From Alistipes sp. (GTDB lineage: Bacteria; Bacillota; Clostridia; Oscillospirales; Ruminococcaceae), in contig JAMPAJ010000001.1 of NCBI GenBank assembly GCA_023667265.1, positions 676,797-740,796 on the forward strand: a stretch of DNA of 64,000 bases, written 5' to 3'. Below the pieces are notes generated by a model. It did no database searches. It had not been told where the DNA came from and worked only from the letters and a program-made list of their open reading frames with translations. Position 1 is the first letter of the stretch. Every line of letters begins with the position of its first letter. A program made the translations under genes and the position numbers. Shown here in pieces: positions 8,896 through 55,118 of this stretch.

Positions 8896-9195
8896 TCACA
8901 AAACGCCCTTCTTTTTAAGTCTGTCAAAAACAATGCTGTAGCCGTCGCTGCCGTCCTGGAGCGAGCGGTTAACTCTGCTTATTGTAGCCGTACTTGCACC
9001 GGTTTCTGAAACGATGCTGTTGTAGACGCGGTGCTCGTCAAGAAGCCGGGCAACGTGAAAACGCTGAGCAAAGGATTTCAGCTCGATGGTGGTGCAGAGA
9101 TCAACAAAAAATTTATAGCAGTCGTCAACTGATTCCAGTGTAAGGATAGCCTCGAAGAGCTTATCCATATTCTCTGATTTGATTTTATTGTTCAA
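8896..9195 (-). CDS. YerC/YecD family TrpR-like regulator
   Basis: The 99-aa product has the TrpR-like helix-turn-helix of the YerC family: FAQRFHVARLLDEHRVYNSIV, then GASTATISRVNRSLQDGSDGY as the recognition region. Its length is typical. Such proteins are DNA-binding regulators of mostly unknown targets and lack the tryptophan pocket of true TrpR. A consensus promoter lies about 80 bases upstream. The gene ends 44 bases before the GH9 cellulase in the same direction, with no visible terminator between them. Confidence 0.85.
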   Translation of the reverse strand: MNNKIKSENMDKLFEAILTLESVDDCYKFFVDLCTTIELKSFAQRFHVARLLDEHRVYNSIVSETGASTATISRVNRSLQDGSDGYSIVFDRLKKKGVL

Positions 9196-9422: not shown

Positions 9423-9447
9423 AAAAAGAGAGCCGAAGCTCTCTTTT
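9423..9447 (-). terminator. Terminator of RNase P RNA
   Basis: On the minus strand, AAAAGAGAGC TTCG GCTCTCTTTTT directly follows the RNA's 3' end. Confidence 0.85.
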
Positions 9448-9797
9448 CATGACCAGACCGATAAGCCGGGTTCTGTCGTGTGCGGCAATTTATCTACGCT
9501 TACCGTCGCCGATAAGCTCAAGCCGTCATTACCCTGTATCCCCCGAGCAGGAGTTAAGACACAAAGTACCAATAGACGTTGCATCGGGTAGGGTTTACAT
9601 AGCTATGCAGTCTCCTGCACACTGGTGAGCTCTTACCTCGCCTTTCCACCTTGACCGCGCCGTTTCCGGCATGGCTGAATATCTCTGTTGCACTTGCCCT
9701 AAGGTCGCCCTCGGCTGCCGTTAGCAGCTACCTTGCTCTGTGATGCCCGGACTTTCCTCATAAACTTAACGTTTTCCGCTGCCGCATAGTCTGCTCA
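9448..9797 (-). ncRNA. rnpB: RNase P RNA, bacterial class A-like
   Basis: On the minus strand the 5' part has the P4 core GAGGAAAGTCCGGGC, then GGGCGACCTTAGGGCAAGTGCAACAGAGA. The 3' part has GACAGAACCCGGCTTATCGG, the partner strand near the CCA-binding loop. These are signature RNase P sequences. The molecule is about 350 nt, flanked by a perfect-spacing promoter and a terminator. It is the catalytic RNA that matures tRNA 5' ends. Ends are estimated to within a few bases. Confidence 0.95.
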
Positions 9798-10629: not shown

Positions 10630-10677
10630 AGTAATATCAAGTCTCCTCTGTTTTTTGAATACAGACCAAAGGTCTAA

Positions 10678-10750
10678 GGGAATGCCCTCTCCTGCAGGAC
10701 TCCGCCTCTGGACTCTGCAAAAGGAACCAGTCCCTTTTGAAACCCGATTC
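10678..10750 (-). repeat. Multi-hairpin 3' repeat, copy A (partial)
   Basis: On the plus strand this shares GCCTCTGGACTCTGC plus AAAAGGAACCAGTCCCTTTTGAAACCC with copy B at 14124-14254. It lies 12 bases after the stop of the REC-kinase gene, in the same sense as that gene. The distal hairpins present in copies B and C are degraded or absent. Confidence 0.75.
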
Positions 10751-13614: not shown

Positions 13615-14123
13615 GGCAAAGACAAGATTAAAACAGCAAAAAAAATTGGGCTTCAAAAGGGATGGTTGTCCCTTGTACGTGCGAAATTTCGAGACACACA
13701 AGACGGACACGGCGTGCCGTGTCCCTACATAATCAAATTTCTTCAATTCGCGAAGAAAACCTCGTCTGATGATATATCAGCGACCGTAGGACGCGGCTAC
13801 GTGAAATTGCCAGCGGGTGCTACCCGCCACGCTGAAAGAGGCTGCATAATTGCAGCCTCTTCATGTTATGTTATGTCGGCAAGGAGAGGTGGAAGCCGAC
13901 GGCAGATTTCTTCCGGCGGCTAATTTCTCTCTGCCGCCGATATATCAGGTTTTCTATCCGGGAAATGCCTGTCCATGACTCTTTGTCGCCTTGACTCTTT
14001 TTCATTCACTCATTCAAGGCATTTCCTTTTCTGTTATTATAATACCATATCCGCCGCGGTAATTCCACCGTAATTTTCCGTGATTTTACCATATTATTCC
14101 GTGATTCAGCTTTGCTACATCTA
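13615..14123. other. Gene-free region rich in hairpins and repeat fragments
   Basis: No convincing gene on either strand. It holds a fragment of the dispersed hairpin repeat (about 13652-13677, AAAGGGA/TCCCTT), a perfect 20-base palindrome at 13705-13724, a copy of the 70-bp degenerate repeat (about 13749-13818), a hairpin at 13811-13834, a terminator-like AAGAGGCTGCA/TGCAGCCTCTT stem at 13836-13861, and short direct repeats of TTTCCGTGATT at about 14075-14110. It looks like accumulated intergenic debris between two minus-strand operons. Confidence 0.6.
13705..13724. repeat. Perfect 20-bp palindrome
   Basis: GGACACGGCG / TGCCGTGTCC-type self-complementary sequence, fully palindromic over 20 bases, inside the gene-free region. 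Confidence 0.7.
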
Positions 14124-14254
14124 AGGAGACGCTCTCTCTTGCAGAGCGTCTAAAGGCATCATCGACCTATGGTCGATATGGGACTCTGTCCCATACCCTG
14201 CCAAAGGCGGTGCCTCTGGACTCTGCAAAAGGGACCAGTCCCTTTTGAAACCCA
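14124..14254 (-). repeat. Multi-hairpin 3' repeat, copy B
   Basis: Four hairpins occur in series: GACGCTCT/AGAGCGTC (14128-14150), ATCGAC/GTCGAT (14161-14177), ATGGGAC/GTCCCAT (14178-14194) and AAAAGGGAC/GTCCCTTTT (14227-14246). The order and linkers match copy C at 46017-46207 in reverse complement. It lies directly 3' of the GH31 gene and in its sense. Confidence 0.85.
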
Positions 14255-14272
14255 ATTTAATGGGCTCCCCGC

Positions 14273-21296: not shown

Positions 21297-21316
21297 TTTT
21301 ATAACTCCTTACAGAA

Positions 21317-43431: not shown

Positions 43432-45960
43432 ATGAACAAAACTATAAAACGCTCCGCTGCCGCTCTTGCAGCTATGGCAGTTGTTTTTGCCGGAAATTCC
43501 GCTTATTCCGGCGGCGTTTCTCATATCTCCAACGCCGATGCCGCAGGTCAGCTCATCGCATTCCCCGGCGCTGTCGGTGCAGGAAAATACGCTACAGGAG
43601 GACGCGGAGGAGAAGTCTACCACGTCACCAACCTCAACGACAGCGGAACAGGCTCGTTCCGTGACGCCGTAAGCAAATCCGGACGTATCGTCGTTTTCGA
43701 CGTAAGCGGTACTATCGAGCTGAAAAGCAATATCCTCTGCCAGAGCAACGTCACTATCGCCGGTCAGACCGCTCCCGGAGGCTCTGGTATCACTCTGAAA
43801 AACTACAAAATGGGTATGTCCGGCGACAATATCATCTGCCGCTATATAAGCTCCCGTCCCGGCCCTGACGCCGCTACAAGCTCCGGCAACGACGCCTGGG
43901 GCGGAGCGAAGGGTTCTAAATCCATTATCGACCACTGCTCCATGGGCTGGACAACGGACGAGCAGTGGGGTCTCTATTCCAATAATATGAATTATACAGT
44001 CCAGTACAGCGTCCTCGGCCCTGCGGATTCCTGGGGCGGTCACAAGAAGGGTCTCCACGGCTTCGGTCTTATGATGGGCAAGGGCGACCTGACCTTCGAC
44101 CACAATCTGATAATCCACAACGTTTCACGTAACTTCCGCGGAAAGGTCCAGGGCACGTATACCGCCGATTTCACCAACAATGTAATATACGACTGGGGCT
44201 ATCAGACAGCTTACGGAACTATCGGTCATCTGAACTACGTCAACAATACCCTGAAAGCCGGAAACTCCACCACAGGCGGCTATCACTGGATGTACGTGGA
44301 CAGCGGCACGTCTCCGGAAAATTTCAAGGTTTTCTGCGAGGGCAACCAGCTCATCAACAAGGACGGCACGTTCCACGCCATAACGAACGACAACTGGTCC
44401 GGCGTAACTGTAAAAGAGGCTATCGGCATCACCAAGGACGACCTGTACTCCGCCTCCCATTTCACCACAATGGTGAACGGCGAGGACGTTTCCTCCGTCA
44501 ATGACGTGGAATCTGCACAGGCTTCCTACGAGCACGTTGTAAGCTACGCCGGAAACGGTATCGCACCTGATAAAAGAACAGCTATCGACCAGCAGTGCGC
44601 CTATGAGACCCAGACCGGAACAGGCTCATGCTCCGGTACGGCGGCATACGACTCCACCAAAACAGACCTTGACAAGTACAGCATCCAGTGCGGCGTTGTC
44701 TACGAATATCCCTCCGCAGTCCTCACAAAGGAGATAACCGACAAGGACAACGACGGAATGGCTGACGACTGGGAACTTGCAAGAGGTCTCGACCCCAACG
44801 ATCCCTCCGACTACGCCGGCGACTACTGCGGTCAGGGCTATATGAACATCGAGTACTACATCAACGACCTGACTGTCAATTCCTTCCCCGAGGGCGTTGT
44901 CACACTCTCGCCGGAATCTACTCCCATTCCTGCTATTTCCGCTTTTGAGACGATAGAGGCGGAGTCCTACAGCGACCAGTATGGCATACGCACGGAGGAG
45001 CTGACATCCGGCGGTCAGAACATCGGCTTCATTGAAAACGGCGACTATACTATGTACCGCAAGGTCGACTTCGAGGACGGCGCAAAGAGCCTCAGGCTTC
45101 TCGCCTCCGGAAATGCAGCCATCGTTAAAATTTATATCGACTCTCTCGACAGTGTAGCTGCCGCAACGATCAATTTCCCCGGAACAAAGGGATTTTCCGA
45201 TTATCAGGAGTTTGAATTCAACATTCCGGCGATCTCGGGAACTCATTCCCTTTATCTCCAATTTACCGGCAGCGAAGGATACCTGCTGAACATCGACAGC
45301 TTTGTATTCGGCAGAGAATCGCTTCCCCTCAACGGCGAATTTTTCAAGAACGTTGTTGTAGCTGAGCAGGCTGCTCCGAGCTCGTGGGCTATCGGCGGAA
45401 ATGCAGCTGTCGGCTCGAATGTTTTCGGGGACAGGGCGTTTACGATCACTGCGCTTCCGGACTGTCTCGCAGGCGGGGAGATACTTATGACCTCCTGCGA
45501 CGCCAAGGGAACTTCCGGAGATACAGCCGCTTTTACAGCAGGAAAGGACATGGATATTTACGTTGCCCTTGACAACCGCGTTGAAGCTGTTCCGGATTTT
45601 CTTGCCGGTTTCACAAAAACAGACGACACTGTAACGATCTCAAATGATGTTGTTTTCGACCTTTATAGGCGCAGCGCCGCTGCCGGAGAGGCAATCACCC
45701 TTGGCAGCAACGGTCAGACTTATCAGTGCGTGAATTTCACGGTTTTTGCCGCGCCGAGCCGTGAACAGATAACCGAGCCGGGAGACGTGAACCTTGACGG
45801 CAGAACGGAGGTTGCAGATCTTGTTGCGCTAAGCAGGCATCTTCTGTCGGCAGAGCCGCTTTCGGCAGATTCGCTTGCGGCGGCAGACGTCGACGGCGAC
45901 GGAGTAGTTGACGCATTCGACCTTGCAAGGCTGAGACAAATCATTATAGCTAAGCTGTAA
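43432..45960 (+). CDS. Secreted PL1-like pectate lyase with CBM and dockerin
   Basis: From the ATG at 43432 the product is 842 aa. A signal peptide (1-37) precedes a right-handed beta-helix pectate lyase domain (about 40-440). Motifs are AVGAGKYATGGRGGEVYHVTNL, RIVVFDVSGTIEL, SIIDHCSMGWTTDE and RNFRGK. A calcium-binding DKDNDGMADDWE segment and a CBM6/35-like sandwich (about 500-610, beginning FETIEAESYSDQ) follow. An unassigned beta module and a dockerin (about 780-842, GDVNLDGRTEVADLV...DVDGDGVVDAFDLARL) complete it. It would cleave pectin or polygalacturonate by beta-elimination at the cellulosome. AGGAGGT lies 6 bases before the ATG. A multi-hairpin repeat follows the stop. Confidence 0.88.
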   Translation: MNKTIKRSAAALAAMAVVFAGNSAYSGGVSHISNADAAGQLIAFPGAVGAGKYATGGRGGEVYHVTNLNDSGTGSFRDAVSKSGRIVVFDVSGTIELKSNILCQSNVTIAGQTAPGGSGITLKNYKMGMSGDNIICRYISSRPGPDAATSSGNDAWGGAKGSKSIIDHCSMGWTTDEQWGLYSNNMNYTVQYSVLGPADSWGGHKKGLHGFGLMMGKGDLTFDHNLIIHNVSRNFRGKVQGTYTADFTNNVIYDWGYQTAYGTIGHLNYVNNTLKAGNSTTGGYHWMYVDSGTSPENFKVFCEGNQLINKDGTFHAITNDNWSGVTVKEAIGITKDDLYSASHFTTMVNGEDVSSVNDVESAQASYEHVVSYAGNGIAPDKRTAIDQQCAYETQTGTGSCSGTAAYDSTKTDLDKYSIQCGVVYEYPSAVLTKEITDKDNDGMADDWELARGLDPNDPSDYAGDYCGQGYMNIEYYINDLTVNSFPEGVVTLSPESTPIPAISAFETIEAESYSDQYGIRTEELTSGGQNIGFIENGDYTMYRKVDFEDGAKSLRLLASGNAAIVKIYIDSLDSVAAATINFPGTKGFSDYQEFEFNIPAISGTHSLYLQFTGSEGYLLNIDSFVFGRESLPLNGEFFKNVVVAEQAAPSSWAIGGNAAVGSNVFGDRAFTITALPDCLAGGEILMTSCDAKGTSGDTAAFTAGKDMDIYVALDNRVEAVPDFLAGFTKTDDTVTISNDVVFDLYRRSAAAGEAITLGSNGQTYQCVNFTVFAAPSREQITEPGDVNLDGRTEVADLVALSRHLLSAEPLSADSLAAADVDGDGVVDAFDLARLRQIIIAKL

Positions 45961-46016
45961 CAACAAATCTCCCACGCGTGGAGAATACAGACCAACGAAA
46001 AGCCCAAACGCGACAC

Positions 46017-46207
46017 CGGGTTTCCAAAGGGACAATGTCCCTTTGGTAGTGTCCAGAGGCAACGCCTTTGGCAGGGTATGGGACAGAGTCCCATATCGAC
46101 GGAACGTCGATGATGCCTTCGGGCGCCCTGCAAGGGGTGAATCTGAAAACAGTCCGGTGGACTGTTTTCAGAGAGGGGACGCTCTGCAAGAGAGAGCGTC
46201 CCCTTTT
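46017..46207 (+). repeat. Multi-hairpin 3' repeat, copy C (longest)
   Basis: Six hairpins in series: CCAAAGGGAC/GTCCCTTTGG (46024-46046), AGGC/GCCT (46057-46067), TATGGGAC/GTCCCATA (46077-46095), ATCGAC/GTCGAT (46095-46111), CTGAAAACAGTCC/GGACTGTTTTCAG (46143-46171) and GGGGACGCTCT/AGAGCGTCCCC followed by TTTT (46175-46207). The last one is also a good terminator. Order and linkers match copy B except for the added ACAGTCC hairpin. Confidence 0.88.
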
Positions 46208-55001: not shown

Positions 55002-55023
55002 GAATAATTTTCACGTCAGCACC

Positions 55024-55095
55024 GCACGCGGAATATTTTCGTCAGACGATAAATCAGCGAGTTCTGCTCGCGGCTGCGTGAATCGCCGGCGGGGG
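55024..55095 (+). repeat. Degenerate 70-bp repeat, copy after the MITE
   Basis: ACGCGGAATATTTTCGTCAGACGA...CAGCGAG...GCGTGAATCGCCGGCGGG. It matches the copy at 54684-54757 and the one at 13749-13818. Confidence 0.55.
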
Positions 55096-55118
55096 ATTCC
55101 CGGGAGAGGATGATTATT

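What the first reader, a model, noticed from the sequence alone, without database searches (positions are those of the whole stretch)
46017..46207. Dispersed multi-hairpin element placed 3' of genes, always in the gene's sense
Three copies (10678-10750, 14124-14254, 46017-46207) share the same ordered hairpins and linkers. Each lies within about 60 bases of a stop codon: the REC-kinase, GH31 and pectate lyase genes. Each has the same orientation relative to that gene, although one gene is on the plus strand and two are on the minus strand. The best-conserved stems differ in loop but keep pairing (GGGACCAGTCCC versus GGGACAATGTCCC; ATCGACCTATGGTCGAT versus ATCGACGGAACGTCGAT), which is covariation-like. 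Copy C also ends in a good terminator. This fits a structured 3'-UTR RNA, or a non-autonomous repeat with a strong insertion bias. Neither is known to me for this lineage.
Basis: partly seen in the sequence, partly recalled or inferred. Interest (0 to 1): 0.75.

Follow-up and report, generated by a model that had tools for sequence, protein, structure and literature searches.

The report
Ruminococcus multi-hairpin interspersed repeat family
A roughly 190-base string of five to six hairpins is scattered at least 53 times through this gut-bacterium genome, mostly near the ends of genes, and behaves like a small parasitic mobile repeat whose fold recurs patchily in several families of its order, although the machinery that moves it is unknown.

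Summary
Copy C (46016-46207, +) is one of at least 53 copies in the 2.57-Mb genome. Copy B (14121-14255, -) is an internally deleted member and copy A (about 10675-10749, -) a remnant. Stem covariation is strong: 98.6% of cells pair, and 128 cells are changed on both sides against a shuffle mean of 37.

The claim 'always in the gene's sense' fails. In co-directional gaps copies lie 11 sense to 7 antisense (own, paired copies left out), 16 to 11 (relatives) and 7 to 5 (other families); pooled p=0.18. Position is non-random: for 48 of 53 copies a median of about 33 bases from a stop codon, enriched between convergent genes, depleted between divergent ones.

Six of 12 compared sites lack the element in the nearest relative, copy B's among them. 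The best reading is a non-autonomous, modular mobile repeat of the BOX/BIME kind. No REP transposase (Y1_Tnp) was found in the genome, Rfam has no match, and the fold recurs in 19 of 147 order-level genomes, own included.

The parts
46016..46207 (+). Copy C, complete element: P1 46024-46046, P2 46053-46071, P3 46078-46094, P4 46095-46111, linker with GGGGTGAAT, P6 46143-46171, P7 46175-46203, then TTTT
   Evidence: CM 193.5 bits, E 4.7e-52; fold z -8.4; 53-copy alignment
14121..14255 (-). Copy B, internally deleted: P1, P2, P3, P4 and P7 kept, P6 region missing; site empty in relative G018
   Evidence: CM 94.7 bits; empty site
10675..10749 (-). Copy A, degenerate remnant: P1 fused to pieces of P2 and P7
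   Evidence: CM 30.9 bits over 10636-10747; nhmmer 39.6 bits for P1-P2 and a weak 4.5 bits for the P7 piece
13645..13674 (+). Isolated degenerate P1 in the same intergenic gap as copy B, opposite orientation (weak match)
   Evidence: nhmmer 11.8 bits, E 0.002; read
13792..13825 (+). Fragment of the 'Y' module that forms part of the centre of most composite copies
   Evidence: blastn E 1.9e-4
55023..55101 (+). Stand-alone copy of the Y module (a second, independent repeat)
   Evidence: blastn E 1.3e-6, 74% identity; Y places in the genome

Best explanation
It is a small, non-coding, modular interspersed repeat that spreads as a non-autonomous mobile element. The unit is an ordered string of hairpins (P1-P2-P3-(P4)-linker-P6-P7, about 175-195 bases) joined by conserved unpaired linkers. 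It occurs alone, truncated, in tandem (G018), or as a tail-to-tail composite, mostly of about 540 bases, whose centre usually holds another repeat (Y) and a hairpin with a T-run. Shown here: many copies, conserved architecture, covarying stems, presence or absence at matching sites between two related species, and location near stop codons in either orientation. Inferred: new copies are inserted by a transposase encoded elsewhere that recognises the folded single strand, which would explain why stems covary and linkers stay fixed. Copies persist mainly 3' of genes, above all between convergent genes, because insertion there harms neither promoters nor coding sequence. Read-through would make them part of mRNA 3' ends as a side effect, with possible effects on transcript stability.
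For: At least 53 copies (49 exact core matches, 2 with one and 2 with two mismatches); the reversed-pattern control gave 7 matches in all at up to 3 mismatches, against 73 for the pattern. Nine tail-to-tail pairs, eight of them aligned. Covariation: 22 of 60 pairs changed on both sides, 0 of 500 shuffles reaching the covariation score, slid controls 35-54% paired against 98.6%. Convergent gaps 18 of 44 with an element against 9 of 60 without (Fisher p=0.0036); relatives 17 of 48 copies against 38 of 299 gaps (p=0.0004), divergent 4 of 48 against 71 of 299 (p=0.014). Of 12 own sites compared with G018, 6 lack the element there, two with closely aligning flanks (B, 858745); 3 sites are filled only in G018. 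The same placement is published for BOX/RUP/SPRITE, read there as parasitic repeats (PMC3049150, passages).
Against: No transposase, autonomous partner or consistent target-site duplication was found; only the Y1_Tnp family was searched. Presence and absence were not polarised with an outgroup, so deletion in G018 is possible at single sites. Most of the 'present' calls rest on elements at contig ends of G018. One covariation measure, further pair types, was not above shuffles (44 against 41.1; 57 of 500 as high). A multi-hairpin order that recurs in several families is more than a plain parasite needs and leaves room for a host function. Gene calls come from my own ORF/hexamer caller, element ends are approximate, and the relatives' baseline includes records of other phyla.
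Confidence: 0.72

Rival explanations
1. A functional structured 3'-UTR RNA that acts in the sense of the upstream gene, for example stabilising or processing mRNA 3' ends.
For: Strong covariation with conserved unpaired linkers; median about 33 bases from the nearest stop codon for 48 of 53 copies; sense copies slightly more frequent (34 of 57 in co-directional gaps); among distinct hairpins G-U cells outnumber A-C cells 46 to 24 (p=0.012).
Against: Sense bias is not significant in any set (p 0.48, 0.44, 0.77; pooled 0.18); copies differ in presence at matching sites of two species; no single hairpin shows a significant G-U excess and P6 shows none (8 to 10).
Confidence: 0.13
2. The element is a portable (bidirectional) transcription terminator that is selected because it supplies gene 3' ends.
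For: Copy C ends CCCC-TTTT. Composite centres carry a hairpin followed by T. At two sites (window 31019 and 48811) own has a plain terminator between the genes where G018 has element arrays.
Against: P7 is followed by 4 or more T in only 3 of 48 copies. By my simple caller 15 of 18 convergent gaps have terminators on both strands, several of them outside the element, and 11 of 22 co-directional gaps with a copy have none on the genes' strand.
Confidence: 0.08
3. A REP/BIME system mobilised by a RAYT (Y1-type) transposase.
For: Palindromic, mosaic, extragenic, 3' of genes and between convergent genes, as described for REPs (PMC3733652, PMC1525189, passages).
Against: No Y1_Tnp match in the genome (96.3% complete) nor in G008, G009 and G011, which carry the element; no conserved unpaired GTAG or CGTC tag (CGTC lies inside the P7 stem).
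Confidence: 0.05

Closest known systems
BOX elements of Streptococcus pneumoniae (and RUP, SPRITE); PMC3049150, passages seen
   Same: Small interspersed repeats folded if transcribed, over-represented between convergent genes, regarded as non-autonomous mobile elements; BOX is modular, with boxB absent or repeated.
   Different: Other lineage and architecture (P1-P7, conserved GGTGA linker). BOX sequences were not compared with it here. This family is found in several families of an order at model level.
REP/BIME (GTAG- and CGTC-tagged palindromes); PMC3733652 and PMC1525189, passages seen
   Same: Extragenic palindromes in mosaics and clusters, mostly between convergent or co-directional genes, with alternative complementary stems.
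   Different: REPs are 20-40-base palindromes with an unpaired tag; the GTAG class is tied to RAYT transposases. Here a string of five to six hairpins, no conserved tag, no Y1 gene found in the genome.
[quoted passage not shown]
   Same: Short, non-coding, strongly folded; composites have inverted ends (AACACCGGGTTTC...GAAACCCGGTGTT).
   Different: No terminal inverted repeat was noticed in single copies, no consistent target-site duplication was found, and no matching insertion sequence is known to me.

Membership tests
REP/BIME with RAYT transposase | Y1/RAYT transposase gene in the genome | tested here: not met
   PF01797: 0 matches in the own genome; 10 of 24 genomes searched have one at E 0.001; G018 was not in that search
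REP/BIME with RAYT transposase | Unpaired GTAG or CGTC tag at the hairpin foot | tested here: not met
   No conserved tag seen in the 53-copy alignment (read by eye); CGTC of P7 is base-paired
REP/BIME with RAYT transposase | Extragenic, mainly convergent or co-directional gaps | tested here: met
   Own: convergent 22, co-directional 26, divergent 5 of 53 copies
BOX-like small interspersed repeat | Modular units with modules absent, repeated or recombined | tested here: met
   Copies without P6, tail-to-tail composites, tandem units of about 98 bases in G018
BOX-like small interspersed repeat | Over-represented between convergent genes | tested here: met
   p=0.0036 own, p=0.0004 relatives
BOX-like small interspersed repeat | Sequence relationship to streptococcal BOX | not tested
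   No BOX sequence was fetched
MITE | Terminal inverted repeats | tested here: inconclusive
   Seen in the eight aligned composites; not noticed in single copies
MITE | Target-site duplication | tested here: inconclusive
   Two clean sites show 4-5-base repeats (CTAT, TAGCA, read by eye) that differ and may be chance
MITE | Cognate transposase or parent insertion sequence | tested here: inconclusive
   Only Y1_Tnp was searched; other transposase families not tested
Known structured RNA family | Match in Rfam 15 at the gathering score | tested here: not met
   Window: only RNase P; 8 loci with copies: none
Intrinsic terminator | GC-rich hairpin followed directly by a T-run | tested here: not met
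   P7 with 4 or more T: 3 of 48
Sense-strand 3'-UTR RNA | Constant orientation relative to the upstream gene | tested here: not met
   Co-directional copies 34 sense, 23 antisense, p=0.18

The most novel reading that the evidence does not exclude
A folded nucleic acid kept across several families of a bacterial order: fixed unpaired linkers (GGTGA before P6, GAGG before P7, the P2-P3 linker) with freely exchanged stems are read by a dedicated, unknown machinery that copies the element through a single-stranded or RNA intermediate. The P2-P3 module, also seen in Acetobacteraceae, would be a part shared across phyla.
Probability: 0.22. Interest if true: 0.75.

Novelty: new variant of a known kind. 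Interest (0 to 1): 0.52.

Why it matters
Small interspersed repeats are described for Proteobacteria and streptococci, but I saw none described for Ruminococcus or its order in the paper searches made here (of the longer result lists only the first rows were shown). This family gives cellulolytic gut bacteria many structured 3' regions that seem to break short-read assemblies (in G018 many contigs end in it) and could alter mRNA 3' ends. Its fold, recurring in several families with interchangeable stems, gives a handle for finding the enzyme that moves it.

Tried and rejected
Always-sense 3'-UTR RNA: rejected on orientation counts. Terminator: P7 has a T-run in 3 of 48 copies. RAYT/REP: no Y1_Tnp in the genome. 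Strand test by G-U against A-C pairs: first totals looked decisive (208 to 7; 153 to 33), but with distinct hairpins and only columns that are Watson-Crick in the consensus it fell to 46 to 24, no hairpin significant alone, so I use it as a lean only. A long-range closing helix (columns 60-64 with 117-121 of A3): 91.9% paired, one pair with changes on both sides, but that pair is unpaired in 8 of 27 rows; unproven. Autonomous partner between inverted copies: looked over the hit lists by eye, nothing found; not a systematic scan. Centre of composites as a transposon remnant: most of it is an independent repeat. Plasmids: no match; phages: one weak match. Searching papers for sequence strings: 218 papers, the 20 listed all unrelated. 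Rfam at a lax threshold gave four sub-threshold hits, the best a microRNA family at 35 bits against a cut-off of 211. Alignment A2 held one sequence in the wrong orientation (L055) and was replaced by A3, which has 27 instead of 38 sequences and leaves out deleted or divergent copies; model R1 therefore describes complete copies. A loose anchor pattern for P6 worked on the order-level loci but gave mostly unrelated inserts on the genus loci (first 60 of 105 shown). Duplicate records (for example L071/L171, L058/L177) were not removed from the counts; 19 of its 67 copies lay at contig edges and were left out of context counts, and 3 of 25. The baseline includes loci of other phyla fetched; that had only 8 gaps and was not used.

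Full report
What is in the window. A covariance model from 27 complete copies (A3; R1; copy C is one of the 27) finds C at 46016-46207 on the plus strand with 193.5 bits, B at 14121-14255 on the minus strand with 94.7 bits and A at 10636-10747 on the minus strand with 30.9 bits. C is complete. B lacks the P6 region. A is P1 plus pieces of P2 and P7. About 55, 17 and 12 bases separate them from the stop codons at 45960, 14273 and 10762. C and B fold far better than shuffles (z -8.4 and -4.8).

How many copies. A core pattern finds 49 exact copies plus 2 with one and 2 with two mismatches in the window's own 2.57-Mb genome; the matches with three mismatches are nearly all the same palindromes read backwards. 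The reversed-pattern control gives 3 and 4 matches against 36 and 37. Those 53 copies were aligned. More partial copies exist, such as C11:61243, 128270 and 851434, and copy A is not among the 53. Nine pairs are tail-to-tail composites (eight aligned; a ninth at C11:979025/979376); most have about 145-170 bases between the halves, two about 100. The centre of most contains a module, here called Y, that is a separate repeat: a search with one composite centre gave 42 places (40 candidates scored of 67), 9 covering nearly the whole centre and 32 only the Y part. The closest relative, G018, has many copies and its contigs often end in them; there P1-P2-P3 units also stand in tandem at about 98 bases. 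By matching contig lengths G018 appears to be Ruminococcus sp. RGIG9104 (JAGBGT01) and G008 R. flavefaciens MC2020; this is inference.

Structure. On A3 the structure P1, P2, a closing helix, P3, P4, P6, P7 has 98.6% of 1509 cells paired; 22 of 60 pairs show changes on both sides; 128 cells against a shuffled mean of 37; no shuffle of 500 reaches the covariation score; slid controls pair 35-54%. Further pair types are not above shuffles (44 against 41.1, 57 of 500 as high). P4 is present in 9 of 27 rows and does not vary. In 20 copies from other genera and families the stems differ greatly while GGTGA before P6 is kept in 19 and GAGG after it in 19 (GGGTGA in 17), and of 20 distinct inserts caught between these anchors 19 are inverted repeats of 8-13 pairs, one with 6 looking like chance (inserts with stems under 6 were not listed). 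Stems alone do not separate RNA from single-stranded DNA: the excess of G-U over A-C cells is 46 to 24 on distinct hairpins and absent in P6.

Orientation and place. With an ORF/hexamer gene caller, the 53 own copies lie in convergent gaps 22 times, sense co-directional 15, antisense co-directional 11, divergent 5. Without the paired copies the co-directional count is 11 sense to 7 antisense. In relatives it is 17, 16, 11 and 4 of 48 copies with context, 19 further copies being at contig edges. In other genera and families it is 8, 7, 5 and 2 of 22, with 3 at edges. Sense bias is not significant in any set or pooled (34 to 23, p=0.18). Convergent gaps are enriched: own 18 of 44 against 9 of 60 (p=0.0036), relatives 17 of 48 against 38 of 299 (p=0.0004). 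Of the 53 copies, 48 have a stop codon on a facing side, at a median of 33 bases from approximate element ends; 34 are within 60 bases. The own baseline comes from gaps near copies and from the window, so it is not a random sample, and the relatives' baseline includes some records of other phyla.

Presence and absence. Twelve own sites were compared with G018. Absent there: B, 858745, 851434 (partial copy), 984492 and C40:65786, and 850365. At B and 858745 the flanks align closely; at the others part of the gap differs, and at 850365 G018 has other sequence there. Present: C, where G018 has elements on both sides of the gap; 843784, C40:74152/74499 and C40:82397; 979025/979376; and 972154, where one G018 contig ends in a plus copy and the next begins with part of a minus copy, so a composite is likely. 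Most of these sit at contig ends. Three sites are filled only in G018: after window 31019, between 48811 and 48860, and near 21310, where the gene order beyond differs. At the first two, own has an ordinary terminator between the genes and G018 has element arrays starting within a few tens of bases of the stop codon. No consistent target-site duplication was seen.

Distribution. By BLAST, 17 of the 23 other genomes of the genus (G001-G023) have matches, and 2 of 16 outside it. By model, 19 of 147 genomes of the order, own included, match at E 1e-5 or better; two of another genus of the family reach the limit of 18 scored candidates, and G155, G113, G085 and G127 of other families have 18, 14, 9 and 7. 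Rfam has no match at the gathering score. Plasmids have no match and phages one weak match; 3 of 5 pattern hits in IMG/VR (L335-L337) score 57 to 144 bits, the other two about 21-25, and a P7 pattern gave none.

Interpretation. BOX, RUP and SPRITE repeats of pneumococcus show the same convergent enrichment and strong folding, BOX is modular, and their authors favour non-autonomous parasitic elements (PMC3049150, passages). REPs sit in similar places (PMC3733652, PMC1525189, passages), but their transposase type was not found in this genome and the tags are missing. The family therefore works like a BOX/BIME element without being shown to belong to either. The step from 'present or absent at matching sites' to 'transposed by an unknown enzyme' is inference. 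A candidate list of structured RNAs from human microbiomes exists (PMC8040213, passages); its supplements could not be read, so an entry there is not excluded.

Noticed in passing
window 55023-55101; own genome: A second interspersed repeat (Y module, about 80-90 bases, CGCTCGCGGAATAT...AGCGAGGTACTCGCGG) occurs at dozens of places, many of them without the multi-hairpin element, and forms part of the centre of most composites.
   Followed up: partly
L185 1555-1650; L162, L166, L167, L214 (Acetobacteraceae and Asaia records): The P2 hairpin, linker and a P3-like hairpin also occur in Alphaproteobacteria (L185 scores 64 bits; a plasmid record of Pseudoroseomonas cervicalis matches 56% of it at 87% identity). 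Shared module, transfer or convergence is unexplained; these records were picked by a P2 pattern.
   Followed up: partly
C11:838159, C11:84534, C11:1338856 (own genome): In 3 of the 53 copies the P7 hairpin is inverted (CTCTCTTGCAG instead of CTGCAAGAGAG) within an otherwise normal element.
   Followed up: no
L048, L049, L053, L054, L056, L314, L315, L217: In relatives the element is often followed, and sometimes also preceded in mirror image, by a motif like TTTTTTGACAGACTGAG near a terminator hairpin (read by eye). With one mismatch allowed it occurs once in the window, at 8916, no more than chance.
   Followed up: partly
L282, L293, L295 (G018): P1-P2-P3 plus TCGGC...GCCGA units repeated in tandem at 98 bases, at contig ends.
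   Followed up: no
window 9446-9797 minus strand: RNase P RNA, class A.
   Followed up: no
own genome G000: Of the 53 copies 43 lie on contig C11 (1.49 Mb) and the other 10 on C9, C33, C40 and C41; no core match was listed on the other contigs.
   Followed up: no
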